The notes under the pieces: generated by a model
Told to the model about the DNA's origin: nothing
Databases searched by the model: none
Seen by the model: only the letters and a program-made list of their open reading frames with translations
Program-made: the position numbers and the translations under genes
In this document: piece by piece, positions 3,401 to 53,887 of the stretch
Numbering within the stretch: the first letter of the stretch is position 1
Layout: every line of letters begins with the position of its first letter
Source of the DNA: a virus
Virus record (IMG/VR): IMGVR_UViG_3300017749_000012
Location: 1-53,887 of that record
Strand: one strand, 5' to 3'
Length of the DNA stretch: 53,887 nt

Positions 3401-3430
3401 TTGTATTGTTAATATTATATATCATAGTAG
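3401..3430 (+). promoter_or_regulatory. Candidate archaeal promoter (TATA-like AT-rich element)
   Basis: The longest gap in the window (3371-3502, 132 bases) contains the AT-rich run GTTAATATTATATATCATAG centred near 3408-3427, in otherwise GC-balanced DNA. It fits an archaeal TATA box. Initiation about 25-30 bases downstream would leave a leader of roughly 60 bases before ATG 3503. It would drive the membrane protein/GTPase block. No matching terminator for the upstream gene is obvious. Confidence 0.5.
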
Positions 3431-3502
3431 TAGTATAGAGAATAGTAAGGACTTATCTCAAGACAACCTGCACAACGACGGACAATCAAAGCGGGAACAT
3501 TT

Positions 3503-21457: not shown

Positions 21458-21470
21458 AGGTGGTGTGAAT

Positions 21471-36178: not shown

Positions 36179-36503
36179 GACAAAGCACGAGATTCCCGTG
36201 GACCCCGGTGACCCTGAAGTGGTCATGGAAGTGTGGGTTAGGGACATCTCCTTCTTTGACGTTCAACGCGCTGCTCAGGAAATGCTAACGCTCGGTAAAG
36301 ATGGCGAGATGTCTCTCGACCTCGAATCCTACTGGAAGCACGCCTTTACCCACTGGCTCGTGCGCACCAACCCCGAACTCACTGTTGACGAACTTCTGAA
36401 CCTGAAGGGCGACATTGGGCAGCGTATCGCTGCTGTGCTTCCAAGTCCCGAGAAGGTCGGGCAGATGCTTCAGGGGGATTTTACGAGCGGCGACGTTCAG
36501 TGA
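36132..36503 (+). CDS. Probable tail assembly chaperone (upstream member)
   Basis: A 123-residue protein starting 47 bases inside the SAP gene in another frame. GGTGGAGATGA is a strong ribosome binding site for ATG 36132. The sequence (EVVMEVWVRDISFFDVQRAA, SYWKHAFTHWLVRTNPELTV) looks like the gpG-type chaperones that coat the tape measure during tail assembly, and the position just before the tape measure is diagnostic. The next gene continues in the -1 frame, as in G/GT pairs. Confidence 0.7.
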   Translation: MPKLPNKSQLLRQTNETKHEIPVDPGDPEVVMEVWVRDISFFDVQRAAQEMLTLGKDGEMSLDLESYWKHAFTHWLVRTNPELTVDELLNLKGDIGQRIAAVLPSPEKVGQMLQGDFTSGDVQ

Positions 36504-36778
36504 TTGAGGGTTTCCTCAGTCGCAAGACCGTCGCCAGTCCCGAAGACGTAGTGATGCAGATGGAACTGTGGGGTTACATCGTGGCCAAACACTACGCTAT
36601 CTCGTTAAAGGAAGTGCATGAGATGAGTCCCGCTACTTTTGAGCAATCACTTGTTTGGGCGCTCGTAGGTCGCAATCAAGAGGAAAAGGAAATGAGGCGG
36701 CAGCGACAAGAGGCAAAAAGCGGAGGTCAGGAGACTGTGTCTCTCGACTATGCTTGGCTCGATACGGAGGACTTCTGA
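36500..36778 (+). CDS. Probable second tail assembly chaperone
   Basis: A 92-residue protein. Its GTG start overlaps the previous stop (GTGA), so it is either translationally coupled or read by a -1 frameshift from the upstream chaperone. The frame stays open upstream of the GTG, but no canonical slippery heptamer is seen. The sequence is helical (DVVMQMELWGYIVAKHYAIS, FEQSLVWALVGRNQEEKEMR) with a charged end. It abuts the tape measure in an ATGA overlap, as the T-part of lambda GT does. Confidence 0.68.
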   Translation: MIEGFLSRKTVASPEDVVMQMELWGYIVAKHYAISLKEVHEMSPATFEQSLVWALVGRNQEEKEMRRQRQEAKSGGQETVSLDYAWLDTEDF

Positions 36779-38094
36779 TGGTAGCACTGGCTGGATTAAC
36801 GGTCGCTCTAAGCGGCTTGACCACGTCCGCTGGGAGTCTTAGCGGTGTTCTCAGCAGTATCGGTAGCACAGTCGCATCAGCGGGAACAGCCATTATGAAT
36901 GCCATCGGTGGTGCAATCGACTTCGTCAAAGAGAAGTTTCAGGGCATCAAGGACTTTTGGACCGAGAACGTCACGCCTATTTGGGAAGAGTTCGCTGCAT
37001 TCGCCACACCTATCATTCAGACCATTGGTGACTTTTTCAACACGACATTCGGGACGGCTTTTGATTTACTGAAAGCATCATGGGAAGCCACCGTGGGTGT
37101 CATTCAGGCTGCGTGGAACACATTCGTGCAACCTCTCGTCGACCTCTTCACCGGAGCCTTCACAGGCGGTATGGCGCTTCTGCAGGGCGATTTTGCTGGC
37201 GCAATGGAAGCGGCGGCTGGCATTTGGGATGCTGTCTTGATGCCTCTTGTCCAACCCTTCGTTGACTTGTTCAAAGCAGGTATGTCTCTCGTCAAGGGTG
37301 ACTGGGACGGCGTCATGACTGGTCTCAAGGCCGTGTGGGATGGGACCATTGGGCCGCTTGTTAGCGCCTTCCTCGACCCTTTCTTGAACGCCCTGACCAG
37401 CATTCGTGAACGTTGGAGCACAATGGTCGAAAGCATGCGTGAACGGTTCGGTTTTATCGACGCCATCTTCACCAAATTGGAGGAGTTCAAGGCCAAGTTC
37501 GACTTCATTCGCGACAACTGGTCACTTATGGTCGAAGTCATGCGTCAACGTTTCAACGATTTCATTCAACCGCTCAAAGAGAGGCTGGCAGGGCCGGTCG
37601 ATGCATTGAGTGAGAAATTGACGCTTATCAAAAGTCGCTTTGGTGAACTCAAAACAAAAGCGACTGATTTCAGGGACACCGTTGTCGTGGCTTTTCAGGA
37701 CTTCATGCAACCGAAATTGGACACCTTTACCGAAGTCATGGGTAGGCTCAAGGATGGGCTGGCCTCGGTGAAGGACTTTGGCGGTAACGTTGCATCGGGG
37801 GTTAGAGAGAGGCTACCTGAGTTTTCTGCTGGGGGTATCGCCAGTGGACCGTCGAGTGGTTACCCCGCTGTGTTGCACGGCACGGAAGCGGTTGTGCCCT
37901 TGGCCGGAGGTCGTTCTATCCCTGTTGAGATGAAGGGCGGCGGAAGCGGCTCTCAGACGTTCAACATCACCATCAACCCAAGCGGCATCACCGACCGCAC
38001 TGACAAGCGCGAGATGGCCCGTCAGATGGGCAACATGATTCAGCAAGAAGTCTCTCGTGCACTTGGCGGCACCACCATGCGAGGGAGGTTCTGA
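36778..38094 (+). CDS. Tape measure protein
   Basis: A 438-residue protein. A hydrophobic N-terminus (LAGLTVALSGLTTSAGSLSG) is followed by repeated tryptophan-containing helices with an exact 37-residue period (WNTFVQPLVDLF, WDAVLMPLVQPF, WDGTIGPLVSAF), then more helix. The C-terminal FSAGGIASGPSSGYPAVLHG and TEAVVPLAGG is the signature end of many tape measure proteins. It sets tail length and exits with the DNA. At about 0.15 nm per residue it predicts a tail of roughly 65 nm, short for a siphovirus. No peptidase or lysozyme domain is visible. It overlaps the chaperone stop (ATGA). Confidence 0.88.
   Translation: MVALAGLTVALSGLTTSAGSLSGVLSSIGSTVASAGTAIMNAIGGAIDFVKEKFQGIKDFWTENVTPIWEEFAAFATPIIQTIGDFFNTTFGTAFDLLKASWEATVGVIQAAWNTFVQPLVDLFTGAFTGGMALLQGDFAGAMEAAAGIWDAVLMPLVQPFVDLFKAGMSLVKGDWDGVMTGLKAVWDGTIGPLVSAFLDPFLNALTSIRERWSTMVESMRERFGFIDAIFTKLEEFKAKFDFIRDNWSLMVEVMRQRFNDFIQPLKERLAGPVDALSEKLTLIKSRFGELKTKATDFRDTVVVAFQDFMQPKLDTFTEVMGRLKDGLASVKDFGGNVASGVRERLPEFSAGGIASGPSSGYPAVLHGTEAVVPLAGGRSIPVEMKGGGSGSQTFNITINPSGITDRTDKREMARQMGNMIQQEVSRALGGTTMRGRF
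37114..37446 (+). repeat. 37-residue (111-base) repeats in the tape measure gene
   Basis: Tryptophan codons at 37114, 37225 and 37336 begin three similar units spaced exactly 111 bases apart: WNTFVQPLVDLF, WDAVLMPLVQPF and WDGTIGPLVSAF. The similarity is mainly at the protein level, so the duplication is old. Confidence 0.65.
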
Positions 38095-38096
38095 GT

Positions 38097-39296
38097 ATGG
38101 CTGACGGTTACGGCACGCCCATCCGCCTCATCTTCGACAAGCCTGAGAACATGAGATTCGCTGGTTATGAGAACGGTATGGAACTCAACGCCCTGTCCAT
38201 TGCTCTCAGCGTCGAGCGCAAAGTGGGTGGTATGCCTGCGCCTTTGATGGGTGGTAGGCGCTTTGGCGTTGACCTCAACCGCGTCAACTCCACCATCATC
38301 ATCGAGGGTATTTTCGTTGATGATGACCTCAACCGCCGCACGCAGAACGCCCGAGGCGCGAGCGGTCAAATTGACTTCGGTCTGCGAAGAAAGGATGCAG
38401 ACAGTGTGGGTGACGTCCCCGCTATCGACACAAGCAAGTTCGGTCGATTGGCAGGAGGTGCCGCAAAACTTGTGCTTACTGAGAAGGATGGGACTGAGCA
38501 TACAGTGACCTTTGTGGAAAGTGCGGGTTCTGTCGGGCATGTCGGCGGAGGAACAGTGCGTGTGCAGAATACCACCAGTTCTACTTTCATCACAGCCGCT
38601 CAACTGGCCTCGGCAGTCGCTACAGCCATCGCCACATTTAGCGCCTTCACGACGACTGTGTCCGGCTCAGTTCTCAATCCGAGTGAGGGAAACTCCTTGC
38701 TAAGCATCACTCAGAATGCTACTGGTCCGATGGACAGGTCGAACAGCATTCGCTTCAGAAACTCCACGTTCTACGTCCCCTATCACGAGAACTTCAGTGG
38801 GGGCAGCAATGCAGTAACGAGGTCAAAGTCTGCTGGTGACAAGGTGCAGGACCTCTACGGTATCTTGCACAACACGCAGCGGGCAGGAGCATCTGCTCTT
38901 GGAGGCATCGCTGTTGCTGCTGGTGTTGCCTTTGCTACTGGGGGCCTCGGGCTTGTAGCCGGACTGGCTATCGGAGGAACGTCGGCAGCACAGGGATTGC
39001 TTGCTGTGGACGGTGACTACCCTATCGGTCTTCAGATTCCATACAACTCGATGGTTACGGCACCGGATGGCAAAGAATACACTGCTCGTAACTTCCTTGT
39101 TCCAACTGGAAACCTGAAGAAGGTTGATGAGAAAATGTCGCAAGGCAACACCAATTCGGCTGGAGTAGAGTTTTCAAAAGGTGACAACATGACTGGCATT
39201 CAAGGTGCTATTCAGAAGTTTGACGTCGGCTACAGCGCAGGTGAGCAGGTCTACACCTACCAGATGGTCTTCGCGCCCATCGACGTTATCGCATGA
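38097..39296 (+). CDS. Probable distal tail/baseplate protein with hydrophobic glycine-rich stretch
   Basis: A 399-residue protein directly after the tape measure. Flanking parts (PIRLIFDKPENMRFAGYENG, STIIIEGIFVDDDLNRR, YTYQMVFAPIDVIA) are beta-rich, as in distal tail proteins. A middle module (ITAAQLASAVATAIATFSAF, then NSLLSITQNATG) resembles a small domain seen repeatedly in marine phage structural proteins. Near residues 263-303 there is a Gly/Ala-rich hydrophobic run (LGGIAVAAGVAFATGGLGLV) that could insert into a membrane during DNA delivery. GGGAGG precedes ATG 38097. Role inferred from position. Confidence 0.68.
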   Translation: MADGYGTPIRLIFDKPENMRFAGYENGMELNALSIALSVERKVGGMPAPLMGGRRFGVDLNRVNSTIIIEGIFVDDDLNRRTQNARGASGQIDFGLRRKDADSVGDVPAIDTSKFGRLAGGAAKLVLTEKDGTEHTVTFVESAGSVGHVGGGTVRVQNTTSSTFITAAQLASAVATAIATFSAFTTTVSGSVLNPSEGNSLLSITQNATGPMDRSNSIRFRNSTFYVPYHENFSGGSNAVTRSKSAGDKVQDLYGILHNTQRAGASALGGIAVAAGVAFATGGLGLVAGLAIGGTSAAQGLLAVDGDYPIGLQIPYNSMVTAPDGKEYTARNFLVPTGNLKKVDEKMSQGNTNSAGVEFSKGDNMTGIQGAIQKFDVGYSAGEQVYTYQMVFAPIDVIA

Positions 39297-39305
39297 GGTG
39301 AAACA

Positions 39306-42300
39306 ATGCCAATCATGCTTCAGTCCAATCACGCCCTCTTCTTTGATGGCGTGAGTGATGGAGTCATCATTCCTCAAGGTGCCTTCAGTGGACTGGGTCG
39401 GGACAGTGCTGACGGGGACCGTAGCGCTTCCGACATCATCAGTGAGTCTTCTCAAGGTGCGCGTGTGGGGAGCATCATTTCCGATGCTATCGGTGGAGAA
39501 CTTGCGATTGAGGCATGGGTTACGCCCGATTGCGGTGGCGTGGTGCTGACAAAGAGTGGGCAGTTTCATCTAAGCATCGGTAACGTCGATACACCCGGAC
39601 CTGCTGTGTTCGAGGTCAACGTCATCACCGACACGGGTGTGCGTAAAATCATCTTGAGGACGGCTACTCCGGTGAGCACAGGCTTTGACGGGACAGTCTA
39701 TCCTTCAACTACGTTCGGTGGTTTTGAGGACTCTTACAATCGCTTCGACGGCGCCAAAGACGATGCTACCAACCTGAATCTCAACCAGCGTCCACTCATT
39801 CACATCGTCGCCGCAGTCAGTCAGGGTTACGCTTCTCTCTACATTAACGGAGAACTGATGGTCGAGGAGGCTCTACCCAGCGACTTCGTCTTGCCTGAAT
39901 CAGATGACCACGTCTACATCGGAGGTAGGGGCGGTGAGTTTCGTGGTGTTGTTGAGAGCGTGCACATCACCGGCGTTCTCACAGATGAGATGAAAACCCG
40001 CAGCGCTCCTTTGGTTGGCAACAGCACGCTGGCCTTGTTTCGCTTTGAGGAGCCAGTGGCCCCGATTGAGGGCACCTATGACATTTCATCTATCGCTGAT
40101 TCGAGTGGGCTGTCTACCATTACCGTCAGTGCAAATGATGCGAAAACGTTGGCTACGGAGTTGACTGGCAATTCAGTGACATCTGGAACTGTCGATTTCA
40201 CGAAGTCGCCTTACTCGTCCGGGGACTACTCAGTGGTCGACTACCTCACATCACCGGGCACACGTCGCGCTCACGCCGTCCCGCACGTTCCATACAACCT
40301 TCTCATCAACCCCGGTGCCATCAATCGAGCGACGCAGAAACCCAATCAGTCTCCGCCTGAGCGTGTTCGGCTACACAACATCAACACTGACACCGGTGCT
40401 CTTCTTGTTAGCAGTATTCACCTTGATTTCGCAAACAGCACACACGACAGTAGGGACGATGCTTCCCTGCATGATGGTCTACGAGGTGTGTTGCACAGTC
40501 GTAGTGCGGTTACAGGTGACGATTACTTTGTAGTCATCGCTGCAGACCTGCTCCTCGATAACGGCACGGCGCGTCCCTATCAACCGCCACATCTTGCATC
40601 TCAACTGATTGACCGCACTGGTCAAATGGTGCTTGATGAGAGTGACTTTGAGCAACACGCACTCGTGTTCTCAAGTCGCATGGCTACGACGACCAGTGAC
40701 AGCAACAACCCCTTCGCTGTCGCTTGGCCCAACACCCTCGATGAGTCATTTCAGATTGGGCACTCAGGACGTCACATCTTCAACCATGTCTCAGGTCACC
40801 AATACCTTCGCAACATGCCGCGAGCCAACGAGGAAATCCTCGACCAACAGGTAGGTAACGCTGACATTTTGGAACTCGTCTTTGACGAAAGTGCAAAGGG
40901 CATTGACCGGCAGTTCCCCATCAACAGTGAAGTCGATTACTACCGCGACATCGCTCAATCGCGCATCGTCGACGTAACATCAAGCAGCGTCGCTTACGAA
41001 GCAGTGGACAACGGTCTTACTGCTGCCAACAGGAAACTGATTGCGATTGGTGGCGCAGGGACCAACGTTGAGTTTGACCCGTTCCCATTCATGCTCAAGG
41101 GCCCTGTCCCCCAGCAGGTCAGTGATGTAGATGCCAACATGCGCAATCACCACCTTCGACCTTCGGCAACCAGCCGTATCGCAATTCTTGAAGTGGACCT
41201 TTCGTCGTATGGCCTCGCCTCTTTCGTCGAGATTCACTACAACGCCATCGACTTCACTGGGGTAAGTATGAGCAAAACTGCACCGATGCTGATGGTTGAG
41301 AAGACCGTTCCAGCATCGAATCATCTGCTGACTGGGAGCACCTATGTCATTGATGCCATTGAGGCCTCACTCAGTAGCGGTAAAACGTTGCACGCGCCGG
41401 GTGGCATTATCGAAGTGACAGACGCCTTTGAGGGAAACTACGCTCAAGCGGTCTTCACTCATTCTCTCATTGGGGACAACAGCGAGGGGTTCGAGAGTGA
41501 TGACGAACTCGATGAGCGCTACACGCCTCAGAATTATGCGACAGTGCGTAGTGAACCGCGACGACCGCCGCAAAACATCACAGCCTCTCATACCACGAAA
41601 AGCGGACACGATTCCGTCTTCCACCGCGTTATCATCGAGGCTGCACCACCGGGAGCATACGCAAGCCCGCGTAGGAGTCCCGCTACCGACCTAACCTCAC
41701 CGAGCAACGGTCAGTTTGACACAGGCATCGCTGCCTCCTCGGGCCCAGTGCACGAAGTCTTTGACATCGTTGACAACCACGCTATCCTACAGCCGACATC
41801 TGCTCAGCGTATCTTTGTTCAGCCTTCCGACCGCTCTCGCAGCGCTCAGTTGAGGCATGTCAAGACGGAGGCGAGTGACGGCAAGGATAGCCACTACGTG
41901 ACCGTGATGTATCTGATGACCCGCGCTCTACTTCGTAGTATCACCGAGGAGGAAAGTGACGGCGGCTCTCGTTTCACCAAGGTTCACTGCGTAGGTATCA
42001 ACTCCGCTGCTATTACTCGAGACATTGACGAAATCGGCTCAGGCAGCCCTGACTCTCACGTTGTGAAGGAGATTGACCCCAACGCACCAGTCGTCTCAGT
42101 TACTCTGGGTGGCATCGGTCAAGGCGCCTACGACACAAACCCGTCGTTTGACCCCAGCACGCTTTCGAGGTTGCCCTACAATACTCGACGCGGCTTCTCT
42201 TGTTTTGCTACAGCCGTTCGTGTTGACCGTGACACAACAGCGGCTGACCGTATTCAGTTCATTGAGGTGCGCGCGCTCAACAACAACACTGATGACTTGA

Positions 42301-45300
42301 AGACGTGGGGCACCTACCCCTTCCCAAAGAAAGGTAGGTTGTTCCTCAAGACAGGCGCAAGCGCTGAATACACCAGCAAGACAGGTGTCGCGTTCATCTT
42401 TACGGATTCAAGCGTCGGCACAGGTCGCTTTGTGTTGCCTGATGGTTCTGAGGTCGGCAATTTCTACGAATGGGTAGACGCCACTGGCCTCGCAGCGCAG
42501 GCTGGGGCAGTCGCGAGCGGCAACGCTGACACATTTTCCCTTGGTGAAATCATTCTCGGTGACGGTGATTTCTACATGGAAAACGCAGCATCGGATGGCA
42601 CCACTGTGAACGACCGTATGTTCCAATCCATGGACACTGTCACTCATGATTACCAACTTGGCACGCAATTCGCCAGCACTCGCGCTCTTGTAGAAATCCC
42701 ACTCTTCAATGCGCAGTTCTTTGAGAGCGTCACTGAGAGCATTTTCCCCGGTCCTGACAACTCGCTGAAATTGCACCTTGACCCTACTATGACGGCTCAC
42801 ACTTGGAATCCGTCACCAGTTGGCCGCCGTTACCCCGAAACAATGCCTGCTGACCGCAGTGCTCATGCAGCCTATGCATACGCACTGTCTCAAAATGAAC
42901 ATACCCGTAGTGCTGCTATTCAGCATAAAGCGGAACTTGTGAGTGGGAAATATCGCTTGTATGTCAGTAACCCTACAATTTTCCCCGCTGCTGACATCAA
43001 CTTCGGTGGTGGGAGCGAGCCTGATTACCACTACGTTGAAAGAGTTCAGCGCTATCAACGGGCCTTTCTCCCAACGGGAGATTGGGTCATCTATCAGAAT
43101 GACCCCAATACTGACGGTTACATTGAGTTTGAAGACGAGAGTTGGGCGTTTTCAGATGGTTTCATTCGGGCTCATGAGACTGGGATGTTGCTCTTGGTCG
43201 GCGCGGGCTACAGTTCAGAAGCATTGGTGCCCTTAGAGGGTAGCCCCCTGATGCCCTCTTCGGCCATTGAGAGGCGAGGTGAATATTACCATGACGCAGC
43301 GAACGTGAAAACACAGGGTGGTAACGTCGATTACGGATTGCGGCAATACGTCAGCGCTGTTGAGTTCAAGGCAGGGCCGACCACAAACCCTCACGCCCCT
43401 CGCATCAAAACAGGACGTGCGCGGGGCAGTGTTCTCGGCGTTACACCCATCATGAACTCCTCAACCTTCACCGGTCTTGTGGTCATCTCTCTGTCTGAAG
43501 AAGATGCTGCGTTGTTCCCTAACGTTGAGACGAACGTAGACGGCGTCGGCAACATCGTCTACGAAAGTGGCGACTACCACTTTCAGGTCAGCACATCTTC
43601 ACCTGATGGGACAACGAGGCGCTTCATCTACAGGGGCGATGCTGCTGCAACCTTCAGCGCCCTAAGTGGCTCTCCGACAAGTCCTGACCAATTTCGCAAC
43701 TCCATTCTTGCCGAGGATATCTTCAACAAGGGAGGGGCCTTGCCAAATTACCTTGACCGCACTCAGTCCGAGTTCATCATTGACCAAGAAGTTCTACTTG
43801 AACGCCGTGGCTTTGACCTCGGGTTCGACGTTTTACCGGATAGCCCATCACTCGAGAGCACGTTGAACATTGTGAATAGTTACCGTCCACCTACGGCACG
43901 TCACCCTTGGACCATCAAGTCGTCACCAACACCAAACAGTAGTGCCATCACAGTCACCAACGCTACGCATAATGGTCTACTGCAAGCCAGTGTCACCGGA
44001 TTAAACGTGCAAAATGCTGACTCACTCTACTGTGAAGTCACAACTACGAGCACCGGGGTAATTCGACATGTTCTCTATCTCGGGAACGTAACTGGTATTG
44101 CAGAAGGTCAAGCGCAATCAACACCGTCAACTGACACCGTCATCAACCTCGATGCGAGTATGTCAGCATCCGCCTTGTCACAGATGCAAACGGCTGCTGG
44201 CGATGCTACAGCGACGCTGTTTCTACGAGTTGGGATTAACAGCATCATGAAGAACGATGATGAGGCTATCCTCAATCGTTCGTGGTTGTTCCCCTATGCC
44301 CCCGGAGGGCTACGTCACGGGGACACGGTGTGGGCCAACATGACCTACAACAACCCTCACGCCGTCGAAGGGTTGTTTGCCAAAAGTCGAGGAGTCTACA
44401 ACGAGGCGTTAGTATGGAGTGGTTTCAACGGCGGGTTGGGTGCACTCGCAACTGAGGCTCGTGACAGTATTCCGCTTGAGAACTTCTTAATTGGAGATAC
44501 TTGCCGGGAGACTGCTGAGAACTACGTTCAACACATCAACAAAACAGTCGAGTTGAACTATCGTGAACTTGGCCTCACCAGTGGTTTCCCCGTAGTCGCT
44601 TATCTTGACCCTATGTTGAGCGACGACGGCCACTCCCGTGTTTTGCTCTATGACGTGGCGCACGACCGTGAGTTCATCGCTTTCCAAGACTTGCACATGC
44701 AAGTTCAGTCAAGTCCAAAAGTCGCTGAAATCGGCTTCCAACGCCATACGTCGGCCAACAACGTCACGAACTCGACAAGTCAAATTGACCTTGCTGAGTA
44801 TTCTGCTAAATACAACGGCGGCTCTCAACACGGCTACACCACTCAGATTGATACACTCGCGGGCTACCCGAGTCAGAACAAATACCTACGCAACAGGGTT
44901 CGTTCACGATTCATGGAGAGCGCCTACGCCCATGACCTCGCCAACCACTTCGCTGCGAGCATTATGAAGCAACCTGTTACCGGTAAGGTCACCTCCTTAG
45001 TGCAATTTTACGGGACAGGTGGTAATGGGTCGGGCTACAGTGGTGCTACTGGTGCAGCCACTACAACCCCCGGTAACGGTAGTGGGTTGACAGTCAACAC
45101 CACGGTCAGCGGCGGAGGCATCACTGCAGCAGTCATCAATGCTGCTGGCACAGGTTACGCTCACAACGACATCATCACGGTCAGCGGAGGAACAGGTGGG
45201 CGTTTCCGCGTGCGCATCTCGCCCAGTTCAGTGTCAAGTCACTTAACGTCAATCGAGCGAATTAACCAGTTCGGAAAGGCACATGGTCACATCGTTCACA

Positions 45301-48300
45301 CGGGCTATTACACTGGTGCTGCCTTTGATGAGCGAGCGATTGGAGACAGCATCCTACCCCGGACTAAAGATGCGGTTGCTATCCCCTATTGGGCTGATTC
45401 TCTTCACACCTTCACTCGAAAAATTCGCTCCAGTCTCGACCGATTTATTGTGGCTTTAACGCTCCATCGGGAAGAAAGTGTGCGCACTACAGTGCGCGAC
45501 CCTTCAACGCTGTTCGACACGCCTGATGGGACTCGTGTTGTTCCGGCATTCCTTGCCCTACGAGGCATTCGTTCAGGTGCCCTTGATTTGAGCAGCCACA
45601 GCGAGCAGCGTCTACAGCATCTGAAGCACTGGACAAGCATGGATTTCACTCGCAGGCTGACCATTGATTGTGGTGAAATAGCCACGCGAGATGGCGTTAC
45701 TGACATCGAGGCCGCCGCGCGTGAAGTTGTTCGAATCATCAATCAAGCGGGCGCAGATAACGCTCGCGCAAACACCACCGGCGGTGAAACTGGCTCGGCG
45801 TTCGACCCAGCAGTATGGTGGGACTCAGACAAAGCATTCGCCTCTAAGGACCAAGGTAGCCACATGGGTTACTTCCGAGCCCATCTTGGGCGTGTTGTGC
45901 AGGACATCAAGGGACGGGAAGGATTCTCAGTCGTCATTCATAGCACTGTGCCGGGCGCAACTGGTCGTAACTTCGCAGTGTGGCTTGACAACGCAAGAGG
46001 GCAATCTCCCTATCAGCCTGAGTTCCTCATCGGTCATGGCGGACGTTTCAGAACTTTCTGGTGTCAGCCTGACGAGATGAGCGGGGAAGCCATGCACCCT
46101 GCGCCAATGCCACTCAACAAGCACGGTCGTCCGTTTGCACCAGTTACGACGTTGCGCGGTTACACGCTACCTGACTTCTCGTCATCTGATGTTAAGCCAA
46201 CAACAGATTTTGCCCGTCGTGGTGACGAAGACTCTGACCCAGTTATGCGAGCCATTTCTATGGTCAGTGGTTCAGGCCAGTCGATGAATACAGTCAACAC
46301 CGAGTCACTCGAGGCTGAAGGTTACGTCAACACCTATACTGAAGGGCTTAGAGTTGGCTCTTCTGCAGTAGGTCGAGTCAACTTTGGCGGTATCGTTGCT
46401 GCAGGAATCCCCGGATTCGCCCCTGATGCGGGTTCATGGGGGTTCGGTCGTAAGGGAGACAAGCGTTTCAACAAGCACTATGGCGACGTGCACAACATTT
46501 CTGGTGACACCGTTGCATCAACCTACACTTCACATGTGCCCGCCAGTCAAATTTCACATGATGCCATTGGCAACAGCCCTCTCTATGCTTTCCAATTTGT
46601 AGACCACCTTGGTAACCGACACGCCATTCGTATCGTCTATCGCGGTATTGACCAAGACTTTACTCTCGATGAGACTCAGTTACCCGATACACTTGAAGAC
46701 GAAATTGTCGTCTACATCGACGACCGCGACGTTGGGCAGGGCGGCTTCACCATCGGTCGTCACATGCACGGTCTTGGTGACGCTACTGGTCGTTTTGGCG
46801 CCAACCCAACCAACGCCACTTTGGCATCTTGGAGAGGTAATCGTTGGAACGCTGTGCCGGGAGTCAACGCAGCCTATGACTGTAAGGCAACGTATGATGA
46901 TGCAAACAAAACACTCACACTTGTCTTAGAGGCACCATACGACTCTTGCCCGCACTTTGACGTTCTTGGTTACATGGGCTTCCCAATGGAAAACGGTGTC
47001 ATTCAGGTGTCTGACCCATTTAACGACTCAAGCGCAGTTGGTAACTGGGGACACATGTTCTCCTACGGCAGCCGCACGCGCAACGACAACTCAGGTGCAC
47101 ATGTTTTCTATGGCGTTGAGGGCGAGCGTTTTGGCTCATGTCAAGCCTACAACAACTCGGCTTCAGTGACATTGGCAACCAAGGGTTTCGGCGATAGTTC
47201 GGTCGACATCCGGGCGCTTGTTTCATCCTGCGCCAATTGGACTACCTTGGTCACTGATGAACTCCTCGCGGCAATTATCACGGCCACCGTCAACCTCGAT
47301 AACCCAAATGTCGAAGAGGGTGTGCCTTTCGATTGTCGCGACCTCTTCGCAAGTGACGGGCGAACGTTTGGGGAATGGGGTGTGGCTGACGATGCTATTC
47401 GTATTCGAGCCTACAATACCAATCGAGGGGTTCGGCCAATTTCAGACTTCTTCAGCGCCACACTGCACCGCGATATGGCAATTCAAGCAGCCCACGTAGA
47501 GCACGGGGACATTCAATTTGTCAAGACAACAGCGAGCGGCGTCATTCTTCCTACGACTAATCGTTCAGCACCAGATGCCTCGATTGATGCTGGGTTGAGG
47601 GCAGAAGTAGGCTACATTCCCTTCACGGTATTGCAGGTTACAACCAAGGGAAGAGGTGCCAATGCGAACACGGCATCCCCTGTCCTCGTTGATTCCAGCA
47701 ACGATGTGGTTGATACCGAAGTGTGGAGTCAAGGGCTCAACGGTCATCGTTTCACAGCCTATTCAGGTGACCGCATTTTACCAATGGTGAACAACCCAAC
47801 GTTGGTCATTGACACAATTACTGGGAACAACATCGCTGTGAAGGGGACGAATGACCCATGGCACTTTGTTCGACCAGCCGGTAACAAGACTGCAAACTCA
47901 ATCACTGACGGTAGCAGCGCAATTGACCATGTGGCTGCTTTCGGTAGTCAGTCGCTTTTGTTTTACGGTGAAGACTTCGCTCTTGTGGAGAGTGAAGCAG
48001 GTAACCCGTTGACGCAACTTGACGCGGTCGCCGACACCGCAAGTAAGGACTGGGCCAATAAGACGACTGGCGTTCACATCGTTCAGCGTTTCGGAGACAG
48101 TCGGGCCGCAAGCACAGCAGGCGTTCGAGGTCTTGGTAGTCTCCATTCGCGACCGCAAGTCTTCTTCCGAGGTGGGCGAGATAGCACAGACCACTGGGTG
48201 CCGTTGTTCTTTGGTGGTGGTTTCAGTGGCGTCACACTCGACATTAACGATGGTAGCGTCAACGATTACAGTGAGAAATACACACACCCGTATGCAAATG

Positions 48301-51300
48301 GTCCCACAGGTGTCGCGGGTATTCAACATGCTAACGAAACGCTTTCATCGTTTTCTATGGTTGACTGCAACGCCATTATGGCCTTTTTCCCCGGCACGGC
48401 TCTCTTGAATCAGCATCGTGGTAGCCTCAATCCACCGTTTTTCAACCAAGACAGCATTCTCAGCCCTGACCTCAAAAGAGGGACTCAAGCAGTCAACGTA
48501 AATCACCCAAATGCAGCACCCTACTCAGCGGGCGTGCACATTCAAGTGCCTGTTCCATTGGTGCTTCGCTTCGCTCATCCGACTGCGCGTTACCACGACC
48601 ACCGTGACAGCACTGAGAACAAAACTACGTTCCTCATTTTTGGCCCCGGTCAGGCCTTCCCATTCACACAAGAAGTAGCAACACCGGTCAACACCTTCGA
48701 ACCAGCACCCGGTCGAGCCATTACGGTTGGTAACACTTGGTCTAAGGTCCCGAGTCACACTGGTAGCAACACGGCTTTCATGCCTAACCACATCATCAAT
48801 GACGCCGGTCATTACATGCCTTGGACCAGCGCGTATCAGACCGACCGGGGTCGCTTCCATTGGCGACAGACTGTCAATTGGGAACCTCCTCAAGGTAAGC
48901 CCAACGTTGCTATCTTGGCTCAGCGTCCTGAGTCCGGGCGCATGTATGGTGAAGTCTTCACTTCAGGCGTGTCGAACCTCACCACTTCTAACGTCCACGA
49001 CTATCGCATGGCTCACCCCAGCCGACATGCCGTCTACATGGGCTTCTCTATGGTCAGTAGTTCAGACTGGTGTTACCACATGGATGGTGGTTATCACCCC
49101 GGTGGTTCATGGCTTGACAATCAAATTACCTTCAACCCACCTCATCCTGATGATGATAGCCGTGTGACGAAAAGCAGCATCAGTGGTAACGAGTTGCACC
49201 CAAGCGCTTTCCGAGTCGCAGGCCCCCTTGCCAAGAAAGTGCTCTACGGGTCATCCGGCTCGTTTGCTGCTGAAACATTGGACAAAGACGACGTTGACAT
49301 GGAATACATCGCCGTTGATGCAACACGCTGTCAAAACAGTGAAGAGATGGCTGCGTTGCTCGGCGCTGCCATCAACGCTTATCCGGGTGGTGGCGCCCTC
49401 AAAGCGATGGGTGGGACCTTCCTCCCAAGTATGGGTAACGCCATGCGTCAGGACCGCTACGGGTGGCGTGAAGTTGAGGGTTCTGACGTCGTGCAATACT
49501 CCAAAGCGACTGCCTTGAGCACGAACCTAAACGCTGCCTTCATCACATTGGATATGGGCTCGAGTAGCGACCACGCCTACAATATCCCTGAGACGGGGTG
49601 GCTGCGCACGACCAGCATCTATGCTACTGGTGTGGGCTCTGAAAACTCACCTGCTTTCGCACCCTACTATGCTCGTATTGTGATGCAATCAGGTAGCGAC
49701 TTCCACGTCAAATTCTTCCTTGGGCAAAACCGTATCACCGGATTCACCGCTTTCGAGAGCGTCGCTACGTGGGACAACCATCTCGACTCCGCTACCTTGA
49801 CGTTCCCCACCATCGCCAACACTGACTCGGGACTCAAGATTTACGTGTGGACCAAGGGCGGCGTTCATCGTTTCCGCAACTCAGCACGCAGCGGCGGCTA
49901 TGATGCTGTTCACTTTAGCGGTCTTGTGGACGCCATTGACCGCACCAAACCTGTCGGTGTTGCAGGTTGGCACGGTGAACGTTACTCCTATCTGAACACG
50001 CTGCAACCTGAATCCAGCAAGTATGCTGCTGGTCTCGGAGCATGGCATTCCTGTCTTGGTTTCTCACCATACGGCGGTAGCATGGGTTGCGCGAGCACGC
50101 TCGGGCATCTGCCCAATATTACTCCGATGCCAAACAGCCCTGAGTCAGGTGAGCCGAATGAGGGTGATGATGGGATTGGCGCTTACCCTACGCCAACCAA
50201 TCCTGACGCTCCACAAGATGCATACAGCATGACAGATAGTTCTCCAACCTACACCGTTGGCTTTTCGGATAGCAGCGACTTCAACACACCACCCGTGATG
50301 GAAAACGAAAATGAGTTGCAGAAGGAGTTGACACACACGCAAGGTGTCTTCTCTCGCGGTTTGCTGGTTGTTGCCCATGAATCTGAACTTGCACTCATCG
50401 CCAAGACAGACCGCGACGGACAGAAGTGCATTGGGGATTGGTTGCGTCTTGCTGACGCCTCAGACCTAACCAAGGCTGGCACCACTCGTTGGGATGACCG
50501 TATTCACGGTCAAGACCGTTTCTACGCTCCAGCAAATGCTGGACCGAACGTTGAGGCACTGATTCACAACGCTACGACGCGTCCGAGCATTTCCGATTAC
50601 ACCGCCTCAAACGCCCTCGACGCTGCTCCGTTCAATGCAGCCTTCTTTTTCAATACGGCAATCACCGCTGACCTCGAACTGGACAACGCTGAACCGTGCC
50701 TCATGAAAACCGGCGACCTCTTTTTCGACCTTGACAAGAGCATCGGCTCCCACTTTTCAGCCAGCGCCGGGGCGCAGCGAAACGTCGCTGCCGATTTCTA
50801 TTCTTCCGCGTCAACTCAACCCTCCACGCTCTTCGGTGGTAACAAGCAGAAGAACTCGTTTTGGGTTGGTGACGTCAACGCATATGACATGTATGTGCGC
50901 TCGCCTGCTGAGAACTTCAACGTTGAGCATGTTGTGTGGAAGCGTATGGATGGAGGTAGCCTCTCTATGCCAGCAGTCAACGCACGAGGCCTCGGTGCTG
51001 TCCCATGGGTCAACCGCGTAAGTGGTGGTGTTGGTTACACGACTGGTGAGAAGTTGCTCGGAAACGTCCGTTTTTCCTTTGAGACAACCAACAGCGCCAT
51101 GCTCCCTATCATACAGGCTCAGGAACTCAGTCACCCTCAATTGGCTGAGAAGCACCCCATGCTACTGAAGAACGCACTTGAAATTCCCAACGAACACCTA
51201 CAGTTCGAGGACATGAGCGTTGTTGATGATACAGGGCAATCGCATACGCTTAGCGGCGGTTCACCGTTAGGTGTGGTGATTCGGGCATTCAGCGCGGCAG

Positions 51301-53887
51301 GTGAACGCCTTGCCAGTGGATTGGCACCGTCAGTTGCCAACACCTCGACGTCCCCCAACCTCTTGGTGCAACTACCTGACCCTGAGTCCATCCCCGGTAA
51401 TATCATCGTTCGTAGTGGGTTTGACCGCTTACAGGCTTACCAAAACGAGACTATGGGTGATGGTGGTATGCTACACCCAGACCTCGGTGCAAGTCACATT
51501 GGGCATCTGTTTGACAATGCAGTCAAGGGACCTCGCTTTGGTCCGACAATGAACGAGGTCGGTTGGGAACATATGGCGGATGGTGCAGCGTTCCCCGATA
51601 GCAGCAAAGATGGCTGGGTTGAGGCAACCGGTAATCGAACCCTGCAGTCCTCCTACGAACAACACGACCGCACTTTGTTCTTCCACGTCACGAAGATGGG
51701 GCACAGCCACAGCGAGCGCTTCAACGCAGTGTATTCACACAGCAATGGCGTGGAGTCGCAGTCATTGACCATCAGTTCCTACAGCAGCGGCACACTGACC
51801 GTATCTGCAACTGTCAACACTCGATTGTTTGACGCTGATTTCGGAACAAAGGAAGTCAGCGACAACCGACGTTTCTTACGCCTATCAAGTGGTAGCGATT
51901 CGTGCGTTGTCTCCTACACCGGTATCAGCGGTGTCACATTCACTGGTGTCGTTGGTGACATCGACTTCACTCAGTTCATCGCTGACCACCCCAACGCTTC
52001 TGTTGCACCTTCCTATTACATTCCTGCCGGTAGCACTCGCTTCTTTGCAGCACGTCGTCTACGCGACCATGCTGAGGTCAGCGGTAACAGTCCTGACATG
52101 GCTCACACCGAGTATGCTTCAGGTAATCAAAACACGCTTATCATTGACCGTTACAACAAGCCGCAACTGACGCCAATGCCGATGCCTCGCATGGGTCATC
52201 ATTTTGTCAACGCAACAATGCCAATGCTACCCGGACACTGGGCACATCCCGCCTATCAGGGGCTTTATGGCAAACATGAGTCTGAGCGTCGCGCCGCACT
52301 GCAAGACCCTGACTTGATTCGTTTGCTGGATGCTACCACTCCGACTATGACAACGTTGGGTGCTGAACTTACCGACTACTTCCACCCCCTCAATCCGCAA
52401 CTGCGTATTGGTAGTCTCACAGCCACACCAAGTGGGCCGAGTGACATCCATGGCGGTGCGTTCACGTTGATGTTTGAGAGCAAGGTGCGATTTGACGGCT
52501 ATGGCGTCCTTGCGTCCAAGGGCACAGCCGGGGGCATGAACAAGTTGGGAGGTCACTCGATTGTGTTGGAGGCTGGTGGAAACTACACGCAAGACGGTCA
52601 CTTCCCTGACCCTGCCGAGGTTGGTGCTTACCAAATCGTCATCCAGCCCAATCTACGAAAGCAACAAATTGCAGGTTTTCATCACAACAACAGTAACGCT
52701 GCAGCGCTACCTGACGGGTCTGCTCGCGAATTGACTGGTCAACAGGTGAACCTCGTCATCGGTATCAAATACGACTCGGAGCGCGGTGGTTCTGCGATTG
52801 GAGGGGCGACTCTCATCCTTGCTGAAGCGACACTGGCCGATGTGCGTGGTTGTGAAATCTTTGTCAATGAACTCATCCTCGACCATAACCCTGACCACGG
52901 GAGTCAGTTCACCAACATCCCACCGATGTTGCTCTATAACGCACTGGGCGTGCAAGGTAGCGAGTCACCGGCATTTACTCGCCGTAGTCAAGCATACCAT
53001 ACGAGTATGTTCGTAGACGCAACACCGGGGTTCACGCTCAACATTCCTTGGTGGAGCATTGTTCACAAGGTTGGTCCCGATGACAGCACAGCCACTGGGT
53101 TCCGTCACCTGTCCATCTACCGTCTTGACAATTACTACGAGTTCTGCCGAGCGTCACACGGTGCAGTCGGGGCTCAATTGACGTTGGCGGGCTATCCGTC
53201 CATCAGTCCCGACTTCTACTCCAAGGTGCTGGCCAATGCGTCCCTCACACCAACTGCTACTGTGCAAAGCAAGGGTAGCGGTTACATCCAAGTCGACGAC
53301 GCATCACTGTTCCCTGAGGTCCCCTACTACGGTCAGCAACTCATCTACACTGCTGCTGATGGCAACACAGTGACTCAGGCTTACACCAAGCGCACGGGCA
53401 CGACGCACGCCAGCGCTACAATGAATCAACCCTACCGCTTCATCATTAGCGGCACATCAAGTGTGCCCGACGGCGCCGTGCTGCGGCTCACTCAACCTTA
53501 CAGTCGTGAGGTCACGACCGCTCTTGTCACCAGCACGAAGGGAGTTATGCCTCGCAACATTGACCAATTGCGGGGCGGCACTCGGGACACAAACAGTCTC
53601 TACATGCCCGACGCCTTTGTGTGTGCATGGAGCCCAAATCTTGGTCGCCCTCACACATTCTATTCCGATGGTAGCCGGACATGGGGCACTCCCACAAGTG
53701 ACCGTGCTGTCAACAAGGCCGCCTACAATAGCATGCCTGAACACTATGAGACAATCCACTACCATGGTGTCAACTATGCAGCAAGCCTCGGTCCACTCAA
53801 CCTTGATTTCAAGACACCTAAGCCGCCCAATCAGTTTTCAGGCACCTTCAGTTCAGTGACCGGCTCACCATCAGTCATCACGATGTC
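39306..53887 (+). CDS. Giant tail/receptor-binding protein, at least 4860 residues, 3' end outside window
   Basis: One frame is open from ATG 39306 (after GAGGTGA) to the window edge, 14.6 kb without a stop. Residues about 1-250 look like a LamG/concanavalin-type jelly roll (ALFFDGVSDGVIIPQ, ELAIEAWVTP, YASLYINGEL, HVYIGG). A second lectin-like region lies near 4384-4540 (FTLMFESKVRFDGYG). Residues about 1906-1976 hold glycine-rich loops (AAGTGYAHNDIITVSGG) typical of tail fibres. Near 4196-4266 and 4653-4726 are motifs shared with the neck adaptor (SCVVSYTGISGVTFTG; YIQVDDASLFP). A helical AxxVxxIN module recurs at about 1732, 2119 and 3329. Overall beta-rich with no transmembrane segment. 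Likely a tail tip, spike or adhesion protein; function inferred from domains and position. Confidence 0.85.
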   Translation, partial: MPIMLQSNHALFFDGVSDGVIIPQGAFSGLGRDSADGDRSASDIISESSQGARVGSIISDAIGGELAIEAWVTPDCGGVVLTKSGQFHLSIGNVDTPGPAVFEVNVITDTGVRKIILRTATPVSTGFDGTVYPSTTFGGFEDSYNRFDGAKDDATNLNLNQRPLIHIVAAVSQGYASLYINGELMVEEALPSDFVLPESDDHVYIGGRGGEFRGVVESVHITGVLTDEMKTRSAPLVGNSTLALFRFEEPVAPIEGTYDISSIADSSGLSTITVSANDAKTLATELTGNSVTSGTVDFTKSPYSSGDYSVVDYLTSPGTRRAHAVPHVPYNLLINPGAINRATQKPNQSPPERVRLHNINTDTGALLVSSIHLDFANSTHDSRDDASLHDGLRGVLHSRSAVTGDDYFVVIAADLLLDNGTARPYQPPHLASQLIDRTGQMVLDESDFEQHALVFSSRMATTTSDSNNPFAVAWPNTLDESFQIGHSGRHIFNHVSGHQYLRNMPRANEEILDQQVGNADILELVFDESAKGIDRQFPINSEVDYYRDIAQSRIVDVTSSSVAYEAVDNGLTAANRKLIAIGGAGTNVEFDPFPFMLKGPVPQQVSDVDANMRNHHLRPSATSRIAILEVDLSSYGLASFVEIHYNAIDFTGVSMSKTAPMLMVEKTVPASNHLLTGSTYVIDAIEASLSSGKTLHAPGGIIEVTDAFEGNYAQAVFTHSLIGDNSEGFESDDELDERYTPQNYATVRSEPRRPPQNITASHTTKSGHDSVFHRVIIEAAPPGAYASPRRSPATDLTSPSNGQFDTGIAASSGPVHEVFDIVDNHAILQPTSAQRIFVQPSDRSRSAQLRHVKTEASDGKDSHYVTVMYLMTRALLRSITEEESDGGSRFTKVHCVGINSAAITRDIDEIGSGSPDSHVVKEIDPNAPVVSVTLGGIGQGAYDTNPSFDPSTLSRLPYNTRRGFSCFATAVRVDRDTTAADRIQFIEVRALNNNTDDLKTWGTYPFPKKGRLFLKTGASAEYTSKTGVAFIFTDSSVGTGRFVLPDGSEVGNFYEWVDATGLAAQAGAVASGNADTFSLGEIILGDGDFYMENAASDGTTVNDRMFQSMDTVTHDYQLGTQFASTRALVEIPLFNAQFFESVTESIFPGPDNSLKLHLDPTMTAHTWNPSPVGRRYPETMPADRSAHAAYAYALSQNEHTRSAAIQHKAELVSGKYRLYVSNPTIFPAADINFGGGSEPDYHYVERVQRYQRAFLPTGDWVIYQNDPNTDGYIEFEDESWAFSDGFIRAHETGMLLLVGAGYSSEALVPLEGSPLMPSSAIERRGEYYHDAANVKTQGGNVDYGLRQYVSAVEFKAGPTTNPHAPRIKTGRARGSVLGVTPIMNSSTFTGLVVISLSEEDAALFPNVETNVDGVGNIVYESGDYHFQVSTSSPDGTTRRFIYRGDAAATFSALSGSPTSPDQFRNSILAEDIFNKGGALPNYLDRTQSEFIIDQEVLLERRGFDLGFDVLPDSPSLESTLNIVNSYRPPTARHPWTIKSSPTPNSSAITVTNATHNGLLQASVTGLNVQNADSLYCEVTTTSTGVIRHVLYLGNVTGIAEGQAQSTPSTDTVINLDASMSASALSQMQTAAGDATATLFLRVGINSIMKNDDEAILNRSWLFPYAPGGLRHGDTVWANMTYNNPHAVEGLFAKSRGVYNEALVWSGFNGGLGALATEARDSIPLENFLIGDTCRETAENYVQHINKTVELNYRELGLTSGFPVVAYLDPMLSDDGHSRVLLYDVAHDREFIAFQDLHMQVQSSPKVAEIGFQRHTSANNVTNSTSQIDLAEYSAKYNGGSQHGYTTQIDTLAGYPSQNKYLRNRVRSRFMESAYAHDLANHFAASIMKQPVTGKVTSLVQFYGTGGNGSGYSGATGAATTTPGNGSGLTVNTTVSGGGITAAVINAAGTGYAHNDIITVSGGTGGRFRVRISPSSVSSHLTSIERINQFGKAHGHIVHTGYYTGAAFDERAIGDSILPRTKDAVAIPYWADSLHTFTRKIRSSLDRFIVALTLHREESVRTTVRDPSTLFDTPDGTRVVPAFLALRGIRSGALDLSSHSEQRLQHLKHWTSMDFTRRLTIDCGEIATRDGVTDIEAAAREVVRIINQAGADNARANTTGGETGSAFDPAVWWDSDKAFASKDQGSHMGYFRAHLGRVVQDIKGREGFSVVIHSTVPGATGRNFAVWLDNARGQSPYQPEFLIGHGGRFRTFWCQPDEMSGEAMHPAPMPLNKHGRPFAPVTTLRGYTLPDFSSSDVKPTTDFARRGDEDSDPVMRAISMVSGSGQSMNTVNTESLEAEGYVNTYTEGLRVGSSAVGRVNFGGIVAAGIPGFAPDAGSWGFGRKGDKRFNKHYGDVHNISGDTVASTYTSHVPASQISHDAIGNSPLYAFQFVDHLGNRHAIRIVYRGIDQDFTLDETQLPDTLEDEIVVYIDDRDVGQGGFTIGRHMHGLGDATGRFGANPTNATLASWRGNRWNAVPGVNAAYDCKATYDDANKTLTLVLEAPYDSCPHFDVLGYMGFPMENGVIQVSDPFNDSSAVGNWGHMFSYGSRTRNDNSGAHVFYGVEGERFGSCQAYNNSASVTLATKGFGDSSVDIRALVSSCANWTTLVTDELLAAIITATVNLDNPNVEEGVPFDCRDLFASDGRTFGEWGVADDAIRIRAYNTNRGVRPISDFFSATLHRDMAIQAAHVEHGDIQFVKTTASGVILPTTNRSAPDASIDAGLRAEVGYIPFTVLQVTTKGRGANANTASPVLVDSSNDVVDTEVWSQGLNGHRFTAYSGDRILPMVNNPTLVIDTITGNNIAVKGTNDPWHFVRPAGNKTANSITDGSSAIDHVAAFGSQSLLFYGEDFALVESEAGNPLTQLDAVADTASKDWANKTTGVHIVQRFGDSRAASTAGVRGLGSLHSRPQVFFRGGRDSTDHWVPLFFGGGFSGVTLDINDGSVNDYSEKYTHPYANGPTGVAGIQHANETLSSFSMVDCNAIMAFFPGTALLNQHRGSLNPPFFNQDSILSPDLKRGTQAVNVNHPNAAPYSAGVHIQVPVPLVLRFAHPTARYHDHRDSTENKTTFLIFGPGQAFPFTQEVATPVNTFEPAPGRAITVGNTWSKVPSHTGSNTAFMPNHIINDAGHYMPWTSAYQTDRGRFHWRQTVNWEPPQGKPNVAILAQRPESGRMYGEVFTSGVSNLTTSNVHDYRMAHPSRHAVYMGFSMVSSSDWCYHMDGGYHPGGSWLDNQITFNPPHPDDDSRVTKSSISGNELHPSAFRVAGPLAKKVLYGSSGSFAAETLDKDDVDMEYIAVDATRCQNSEEMAALLGAAINAYPGGGALKAMGGTFLPSMGNAMRQDRYGWREVEGSDVVQYSKATALSTNLNAAFITLDMGSSSDHAYNIPETGWLRTTSIYATGVGSENSPAFAPYYARIVMQSGSDFHVKFFLGQNRITGFTAFESVATWDNHLDSATLTFPTIANTDSGLKIYVWTKGGVHRFRNSARSGGYDAVHFSGLVDAIDRTKPVGVAGWHGERYSYLNTLQPESSKYAAGLGAWHSCLGFSPYGGSMGCASTLGHLPNITPMPNSPESGEPNEGDDGIGAYPTPTNPDAPQDAYSMTDSSPTYTVGFSDSSDFNTPPVMENENELQKELTHTQGVFSRGLLVVAHESELALIAKTDRDGQKCIGDWLRLADASDLTKAGTTRWDDRIHGQDRFYAPANAGPNVEALIHNATTRPSISDYTASNALDAAPFNAAFFFNTAITADLELDNAEPCLMKTGDLFFDLDKSIGSHFSASAGAQRNVAADFYSSASTQPSTLFGGNKQKNSFWVGDVNAYDMYVRSPAENFNVEHVVWKRMDGGSLSMPAVNARGLGAVPWVNRVSGGVGYTTGEKLLGNVRFSFETTNSAMLPIIQAQELSHPQLAEKHPMLLKNALEIPNEHLQFEDMSVVDDTGQSHTLSGGSPLGVVIRAFSAAGERLASGLAPSVANTSTSPNLLVQLPDPESIPGNIIVRSGFDRLQAYQNETMGDGGMLHPDLGASHIGHLFDNAVKGPRFGPTMNEVGWEHMADGAAFPDSSKDGWVEATGNRTLQSSYEQHDRTLFFHVTKMGHSHSERFNAVYSHSNGVESQSLTISSYSSGTLTVSATVNTRLFDADFGTKEVSDNRRFLRLSSGSDSCVVSYTGISGVTFTGVVGDIDFTQFIADHPNASVAPSYYIPAGSTRFFAARRLRDHAEVSGNSPDMAHTEYASGNQNTLIIDRYNKPQLTPMPMPRMGHHFVNATMPMLPGHWAHPAYQGLYGKHESERRAALQDPDLIRLLDATTPTMTTLGAELTDYFHPLNPQLRIGSLTATPSGPSDIHGGAFTLMFESKVRFDGYGVLASKGTAGGMNKLGGHSIVLEAGGNYTQDGHFPDPAEVGAYQIVIQPNLRKQQIAGFHHNNSNAAALPDGSARELTGQQVNLVIGIKYDSERGGSAIGGATLILAEATLADVRGCEIFVNELILDHNPDHGSQFTNIPPMLLYNALGVQGSESPAFTRRSQAYHTSMFVDATPGFTLNIPWWSIVHKVGPDDSTATGFRHLSIYRLDNYYEFCRASHGAVGAQLTLAGYPSISPDFYSKVLANASLTPTATVQSKGSGYIQVDDASLFPEVPYYGQQLIYTAADGNTVTQAYTKRTGTTHASATMNQPYRFIISGTSSVPDGAVLRLTQPYSREVTTALVTSTKGVMPRNIDQLRGGTRDTNSLYMPDAFVCAWSPNLGRPHTFYSDGSRTWGTPTSDRAVNKAAYNSMPEHYETIHYHGVNYAASLGPLNLDFKTPKPPNQFSGTFSSVTGSPSVITM

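What the first reader, a model, noticed from the sequence alone, without database searches (positions are those of the whole stretch)
39306..53887. A tail protein of at least 4860 residues filling more than a quarter of the window
The frame starting at 39306 stays open for 14.6 kb and runs off the window. It directly follows the distal-tail gene. It begins with a lectin-like jelly roll, has a second one near its visible C-terminus, and is otherwise mostly unrecognised beta-rich sequence. Giant tail proteins exist in other phages, but one this size beside a 438-residue tape measure would mean the tail tip outweighs the tail tube length regulator many times over.
Basis: partly seen in the sequence, partly recalled or inferred. 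Interest (0 to 1): 0.8.

Follow-up and report, generated by a model that had tools for sequence, protein, structure and literature searches.

The report
Giant conserved archaeal-virus tail-tip protein
Tailed viruses of a kind thought to infect common ocean archaea carry one very large gene among their tail genes (here a 5,657-residue, about 610-kDa protein); it is real and conserved and probably builds the tail tip that meets the host, and a similarly large but unrelated protein is known from a cyanobacterial virus.

Summary
The frame at 39306 is open to the window edge (4,860 codons). A second IMG/VR contig of the same population (4 differences in 15,099 bases) carries the stop: 5,657 aa, 610 kDa. 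One scan confirmed relatives in 180 stretches of IMG/VR; frames not cut by a contig end have 5,313-6,077 codons, no internal stop, and dN/dS 0.05-0.16. Of 28 capsid-protein relatives tested, 22 have it; the other six contigs end at or before the site. Order tape measure / 399 aa / giant / 473 aa / 114 aa / fibre is conserved wherever visible. The contigs resemble thermosome-bearing Marine Group II viruses (magroviruses); the host is inferred.

An N-terminal LamG jelly roll is confirmed; the second jelly roll is not supported; most of the rest is unassigned and non-repetitive. Best reading: a conserved tail-tip scaffold with glycan-binding modules, while the downstream fibre carries the variable host-range part. 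The short tape measure is ordinary for the lineage, so that contrast says little. Size is not unprecedented: cyanophage S-ShM2 has an unrelated 6,198-aa LamG-bearing structural protein among its baseplate genes. New variant of a known kind.

The parts
39306..53887 (+). Giant tail-module protein, residues 1-4860 of 5657; the stop lies outside the window (in L025 at 17489-17491)
   Evidence: as long in other contigs
39306..40055 (+). LamG / concanavalin A-like jelly roll, residues about 1-250 (structural alignments run on to about residue 500, so a strand may come from there)
   Evidence: Pfam Laminin_G_3 in 19 of 20 members; AlphaFold2 model matched to PAPP-A LamG, Z 17.8, rmsd 2.8, 197 aligned, and to 4dqa, pentraxin and neurexin LNS domains
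52398..53135 (+).
   Evidence: no LamG signal, low-confidence model; conservation
53238..53507 (+). Small beta domain, residues 4645-4734; weak resemblance to tail-tip domains, inconclusive
   Evidence: Z 6.9, 72-74 aligned, to lambda tail-tip chains, tied with unrelated proteins
38097..39296 (+). 399-aa protein directly upstream, conserved position, no known family
   Evidence: an ORF of 376-439 codons in this place in 20 of 20 loci
36778..38094 (+). Tape measure protein, 438 aa (longer TTG reading 36655-38094, 479 aa)
   Evidence: PHROG tape-measure families, best E 2.4e-17, with the longer reading
36132..36778 (+). Two overlapping small ORFs (36132-36503, 36500-36778) in the place of the HVTV-1 tail assembly chaperone pair gp129/gp130; assigned by position only
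28375..29550 (+). Major capsid protein, 34% identical to HVTV-1 over 99%
26960..28333 (+). Head maturation protease
18199..19905 (+). Portal protein
13856..15343 (+). Terminase large subunit

Best explanation
It is a conserved virion protein of the tail tip (baseplate) of a siphovirus-like archaeal virus related to magroviruses. After the tape measure and tube are built, copies of this 610-kDa chain, with its neighbours of 399, 473 and 114 aa, would form the distal cap of the tail. Its modules would make a large scaffold that reads surface glycans, through the N-terminal LamG and perhaps further modules, positions the separate variable fibre and passes the attachment signal on to opening of the tube. 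Shown: the gene, its length, its place, its conservation, the LamG fold. Inferred: that it is in the virion, that the tail is of the siphovirus type, the copy number, glycan binding, signal transmission, the host.
For: Place between tape measure and fibre in all 7 of 23 loci that reach far enough upstream; in the other 16 giant / 473 / 114 / fibre are in order. Conservation over the whole length: 30 other copies are 47-79% identical to the window's; dN/dS 0.05-0.16 in six pairs. In L028 and L027 it is better conserved (78 and 71%) than the tape measure (53 and 42%) and the 399-aa protein (60 and 54%); in 22 of 23 loci the best segment of the fibre stops by residue 607 of 859, and its length varies from 568 to 1,199 aa: the pattern of a structural core plus a separate variable adhesin. 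22 of 28 MCP-relatives have it, and the six others are contigs that end at or before the site. LamG fold. Viral models with weaker structural matches to the N-terminal model include cyanophage baseplate-wedge proteins and a piece of the S-ShM2 structural protein; the latter, SShM2_093, of the same size and with two LamG domains, lies between gp6 and gp7 and has a Pfam baseplate-wedge segment.
Against: No virion proteomics or structure. No neighbour has a recognised baseplate family; the 473-aa protein is only weakly like HVTV-1 gp133 (hhalign probability 15%), itself annotated hypothetical. The 114-aa (93 and 81%) and, in L028, the 473-aa protein (84%) are more conserved than the giant, as is the MCP (93% in the record of L028), so the giant is not unusually slow. 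The fibre of L068 aligns over its whole length. None of 17 HVTV-1 proteins tested is detectably like the giant. AlphaFold2 failed on most of residues 4365-5560; residues 1181-4364 were not modelled.
Confidence: 0.65

Rival explanations
1. It is a polyprotein: one translation product cut by a viral or host protease into several separate tail proteins that in other viruses have their own genes.
For: Well conserved blocks are separated by poorly conserved, insertion-rich stretches (for instance residues 1401-1650, 2801-2950, 3401-3450); no clear internal repeats; HVTV-1 has seven genes (gp132-gp138) of 151-524 aa after the tape measure; the genome encodes a head maturation protease.
Against: No copy seen is split into separate genes: the frame is open through all upstream sequence held in 80 of 80 loci and has no stop in any match of 27 of 27 and 22 of 22 records with a match. 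The protease belongs to the head families. No cleavage site was sought.
Confidence: 0.15
2. It is itself the main host-range adhesin (a giant receptor-binding fibre), rather than the scaffold that holds one.
For: LamG at the N-terminus; insertions between relatives gathered at certain sites, up to about 150 alignment columns per 50 residues; in the pair L027/L042 the synonymous difference is 0.10-0.12 per site in the first 1,000 codons, 0.37-0.56 over codons 1001-5000, then 0.21 and 0.12, as if the middle had been exchanged by recombination.
Against: Purifying selection in every 500-codon block of the one pair examined that way (dN/dS 0.08-0.20); less variable than the tape measure and the 399-aa neighbour; a separate fibre with a variable C-terminal part lies downstream.
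Confidence: 0.15
3. It is an internal or ejected virion protein with intracellular tasks.
For: Size, and no recognised function over most of its length.
Against: No enzyme or nucleic-acid domain was recognised in those searches; LamG at the N-terminus; position after the tape measure.
Confidence: 0.05

Closest known systems
Synechococcus phage S-ShM2 'structural protein' SShM2_093 (ADO97704.1)
   Same: 6,198 aa; marine tailed virus; two LamG domains; among the baseplate genes, between gp6 and gp7
   Different: T4-like phage with a tail sheath; no sequence relation found (hmmsearch -5.8 bits); internal repeats (92 off-diagonal self hits against 0), a YHYH domain and a baseplate-wedge segment
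Tail module of HVTV-1 (Druskaviridae)
   Same: MCP 34% identical over 99%; tape measure 480 aa; order capsid / chaperone / tape measure / further tail genes
   Different: No giant gene in the 41-kb stretch seen; seven smaller genes after the tape measure; the giant's profile finds none of 17 proteins tested
BFVD entry A0A1B1IU10 (piece 1)
   Same: 49% identical over 1,212 alignment columns with the N-terminal model: a deposited homologue
   Different: No name in the tables at hand; its annotation and full length were not seen
Baseplate of archaeal virus HFTV1 (PMC12494034: passages and section 12 seen)
   Same: Archaeal tailed virus whose tail tip is a connector, a hub and trimeric fibres; the authors suggest contact with surface glycans
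   Different: Hub and fibres are separate gene products; the text seen describes no protein of this kind

Membership tests
Magrovirales / Marine Group II viruses | Genome about 90-110 kb | tested here: met
   Several contigs with the giant gene are 95-107 kb; completeness is not given, so this rests on contig length
Magrovirales / Marine Group II viruses | Virus-encoded family B DNA polymerase | tested here: met
   12 of 13 long records; the miss, G004, has its chaperonin gene cut by a contig end, so it is probably incomplete
Magrovirales / Marine Group II viruses | Virus-encoded chaperonin | tested here: met
   Cpn60_TCP1 in 13 of 13. That the copy in L025 is of the thermosome (group II) type is my reading of its sequence; its one genome hit is archaeal (Altiarchaeales, 37%), but PHROGs' best match is named groEL
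Magrovirales / Marine Group II viruses | MCP relationship to haloviruses of Druskaviridae | tested here: met
   33-34% over 99%. Not decisive: PMC8651126 (passages) places viruses of marine Thaumarchaeota and Thermoplasmata in the same MCP clade
Magrovirales / Marine Group II viruses | Sequence link to a named magrovirus or to a Marine Group II host | not testable with these tools
   OR863078 and ON649702 are not in the collections; the genome scan with the giant's C-terminus confirmed no relative
LamG / concanavalin A-like domain (domain level) | Profile match and jelly-roll fold | tested here: met
   19 of 20 members match Laminin_G_3 at E<=0.01, the window copy below the curated cut-off (23.5-25.5 of 27.6 bits); structure Z 17.8
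Giant structural protein of S-ShM2 | Sequence homology | tested here: not met
   Profile of 31 copies against the 6,198-aa protein: -5.8 bits
Giant structural protein of S-ShM2 | Over 5,000 residues, LamG-bearing, in the tail-tip gene cluster | tested here: met
   a likeness in kind only
Baseplate hub / tail-tip proteins (lambda gpJ and gp27-like; names recalled) | Hub fold | tested here: inconclusive
   Only a small domain, residues 4645-4734, resembles parts of tail-tip chains, Z 6.9, tied with unrelated proteins; most of the chain was not modelled
Repetitive giant adhesins | Tandem repeated domains | tested here: not met
   0 off-diagonal self hits; best profile self-match, residues 1431 on against 4811 on, 35% probability over 59 columns

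The most novel reading that the evidence does not exclude
A single, non-repetitive polypeptide of about 600 kDa forms most of a tail-tip organelle that in a distant relative is encoded by several smaller genes: a one-chain baseplate kept across a widespread clade of marine archaeal viruses, possibly maintained together with the virus's own chaperonin, which would help fold its domains.
Probability: 0.15. Interest if true: 0.75.

Novelty: new variant of a known kind. Interest (0 to 1): 0.5.

Why it matters
About one sixth of such a genome (17 of 107 kb in the contig of L028) goes into one protein that is kept in the relatives tested, so meeting the host seems unusually costly and constrained for these viruses. 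No member has been cultured according to the profiles read (PMC10768690, PMC12999244), so a large conserved protein is a good target for metaproteomics and for finding what on the cell surface they bind. It also shows that giant LamG-bearing tail-tip proteins turn up in unrelated marine tailed viruses, an archaeal-type one and a cyanophage.

Tried and rejected
Tried without result: PDB profile searches with four sub-alignments that cover the full length (no row, then one row each at E 0.61, 0.023 and 0.46, unrelated proteins, taken as chance); tblastn of both halves of the window part against named phages (none); PHROGs on the window part (none); pattern scan of genome contigs with the C-terminus (23 stretches, none confirmed); host by nearest chaperonin (one distant hit, not informative); a homologue among 17 HVTV-1 proteins (none above chance); a second LamG; papers on giant phage proteins.

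Rejected: assembly artefact (same length in contigs of other metagenomes; an overlapping contig with the stop); spurious frame (no in-frame stop, dN/dS below 0.2); a protein built of tandem repeats (none found); a gene of one virus only.

Limits: residues 1181-4364 and 5561-5657 were never modelled and the C-terminal model failed; that the protein is in the virion is inference. Three of the six dN/dS pairs have dS above 2 and two more pairs were saturated. Three of the 31 aligned copies begin at a later ATG in my reading. Scans of viral contigs keep only the best 80 loci, and relatives outside this MCP clade were not sampled, so I cannot say which magrovirus clades lack the gene.

Full report
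OBSERVATION. The frame starting at 39306 is open for 4,860 codons to the end of the window. In the same DNA the other five frames carry 110-348 stops with no open run above 163 aa, and 200 mononucleotide shuffles gave at most 345 aa. The window is the whole of a virus record, which ends inside the gene. A second contig, IMGVR_UViG_3300017748_000134 (L025), overlaps window 38789-53887 with 4 differences in 15,099 bases and shows the stop: 5,657 aa, 609.9 kDa, pI 5.5.

CONSERVATION. Scans of IMG/VR with the two halves of the window part gave 25 confirmed stretches each, as 23 and 24 loci. A scan with the C-terminal profile gave 180 confirmed stretches, of which the best 80 were kept; in 80 of 80 the frame is open through all upstream sequence held. 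With the N-terminal profile, 27 of 27 chosen records matched; apart from G020 and G027, cut by contig ends, their frames are 5,501-6,071 codons; the longest frame seen, stop to stop, is 6,077 codons (L038). The 11 with the N-terminal match alone have frames that reach a contig end. The six with neither (G028, G029, G037, G040, G043, G052) end 2.7-10.0 kb behind the MCP, while the giant begins 9.8 kb behind it in the window; only G037 could have shown a short piece. Among the 11 with both matches the frames are 5,313-5,734 codons. Thirty other copies are 47-79% identical to the window's. dN/dS is 0.05-0.16 in six pairs, three of them with dS above 2; two more were saturated.

ANATOMY. No clear internal repeats. 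Only the N-terminal LamG is recognised: Laminin_G_3 in 19 of 20 members. The AlphaFold2 model of residues 1-1180 (mean pLDDT 65.9) matches the LamG domain of PAPP-A (Z 17.8), a Bacteroides putative carbohydrate-binding protein (4dqa, Z 17.8), pentraxins and neurexins. A small domain at residues 4645-4734 resembles parts of lambda, Chi, JBD30 and Mystique tail structures at Z 6.3-6.9, tied with unrelated proteins: inconclusive. Conserved blocks alternate with insertion-rich stretches, and the last 700 residues are among the best conserved.

SURROUNDINGS. The window carries the head module of a tailed virus: terminase and portal, protease and MCP. The tape measure is 438 aa. Of 23 loci compared, 7 reach upstream of the giant and show tape measure, 399-aa gene, giant, 473, 114, fibre in that order; the other 16 show giant, 473, 114, fibre, four of the 23 (L039, L068, L071, L075) with extra DNA after the giant. 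An ORF of 376-439 codons lies directly upstream in 20 of 20 further loci. The fibre matches PHROG tail fibres. Beyond it, on the other strand, lies a chaperonin gene.

LINEAGE. The MCP is nearest to HVTV-1 among named records; chaperonin in 13 of 13 and PolB in 12 of 13 long records; contigs up to 107 kb. PMC5332604 (passages) reports that all 18 of its clade-1 Marine Group II viruses carry thermosomes and 20 genomes of clades 2-4 carry GroEL; PMC10768690 and PMC12999244 (whole text) give 90-110 kb genomes for the order. I infer a thermosome-bearing Marine Group II virus. Against certainty: the MCP clade also holds viruses of marine Thaumarchaeota and Thermoplasmata (PMC8651126, passages), and no direct link to a named magrovirus or a host was obtained.

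FUNCTION. In near relatives the giant is better conserved than the tape measure and the 399-aa protein, though not than the 114-aa protein or the MCP, while the fibre varies in its C-terminal part in 22 of 23 loci. That pattern, the position and the LamG point to a tail-tip scaffold with glycan-reading modules. HFTV1 (PMC12494034, passages and section 12) shows an archaeal tail tip of connector, hub and fibres, and its authors suggest contact with surface glycans; there these are separate proteins.

WHAT IS KNOWN. S-ShM2 (GU071096) encodes a 6,198-aa 'structural protein' between baseplate genes gp6 and gp7 with two LamG domains and a baseplate-wedge segment, unrelated in sequence and with internal repeats. 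The passages of PMC3037559 seen do not speak of this protein. A homologue of our family sits unnamed in BFVD (A0A1B1IU10, 49%). I found no description of the giant in the library held (searches; passages of PMC10160649 and PMC5628999); the magrovirus papers of 2017 (Curr Biol) and 2025 (Environ Microbiol) are not held and that of 2023 (Environ Microbiol) was not looked up, so an earlier mention is possible. PMC10160649 lists Laminin_G_3 among auxiliary metabolic genes in four magrovirus groups; this may be the N-terminus of this tail protein, which I could not check.

VERDICT. Real, large, conserved, most likely the tail-tip scaffold of a widespread clade of marine viruses of archaea; a new variant of a known kind (giant LamG-bearing tail-tip proteins), not a new category.

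Noticed in passing
window 21276-26927: A second very large ORF (1,883 aa from TTG) between portal and head protease with no Pfam or PHROG match; HVTV-1 has a 1,313-aa gene annotated 'zeta toxin' upstream of its protease.
   Followed up: partly
L025 22184-23668 (-): A chaperonin gene just beyond the tail module, on the other strand; Cpn60_TCP1 in 13 of 13 long relatives. It might help fold the giant protein.
   Followed up: partly
L027 2786-19846 and L042 2804-19891, giant gene: Synonymous difference 0.10-0.12 in the first 1,000 codons, 0.37-0.56 over codons 1001-5000, then 0.21 and 0.12, as if the middle of the gene had been exchanged by recombination.
   Followed up: no
window 35633-36178: A SAP-domain protein just upstream of the putative tail assembly chaperone pair and the tape measure.
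   Followed up: no
L025 19253-21832 and relatives: The downstream fibre is 568-1,199 aa in 23 relatives and in 22 of them aligns mainly in its N-terminal part, fitting a host-range determinant.
   Followed up: partly
PMC10160649 (passages): Laminin_G_3 is counted there among auxiliary metabolic genes in four magrovirus groups; it may be a misread tail protein.
   Followed up: no
window 16976-18202: HNH-endonuclease-like segment in a 408-aa protein between terminase and portal genes.
   Followed up: no
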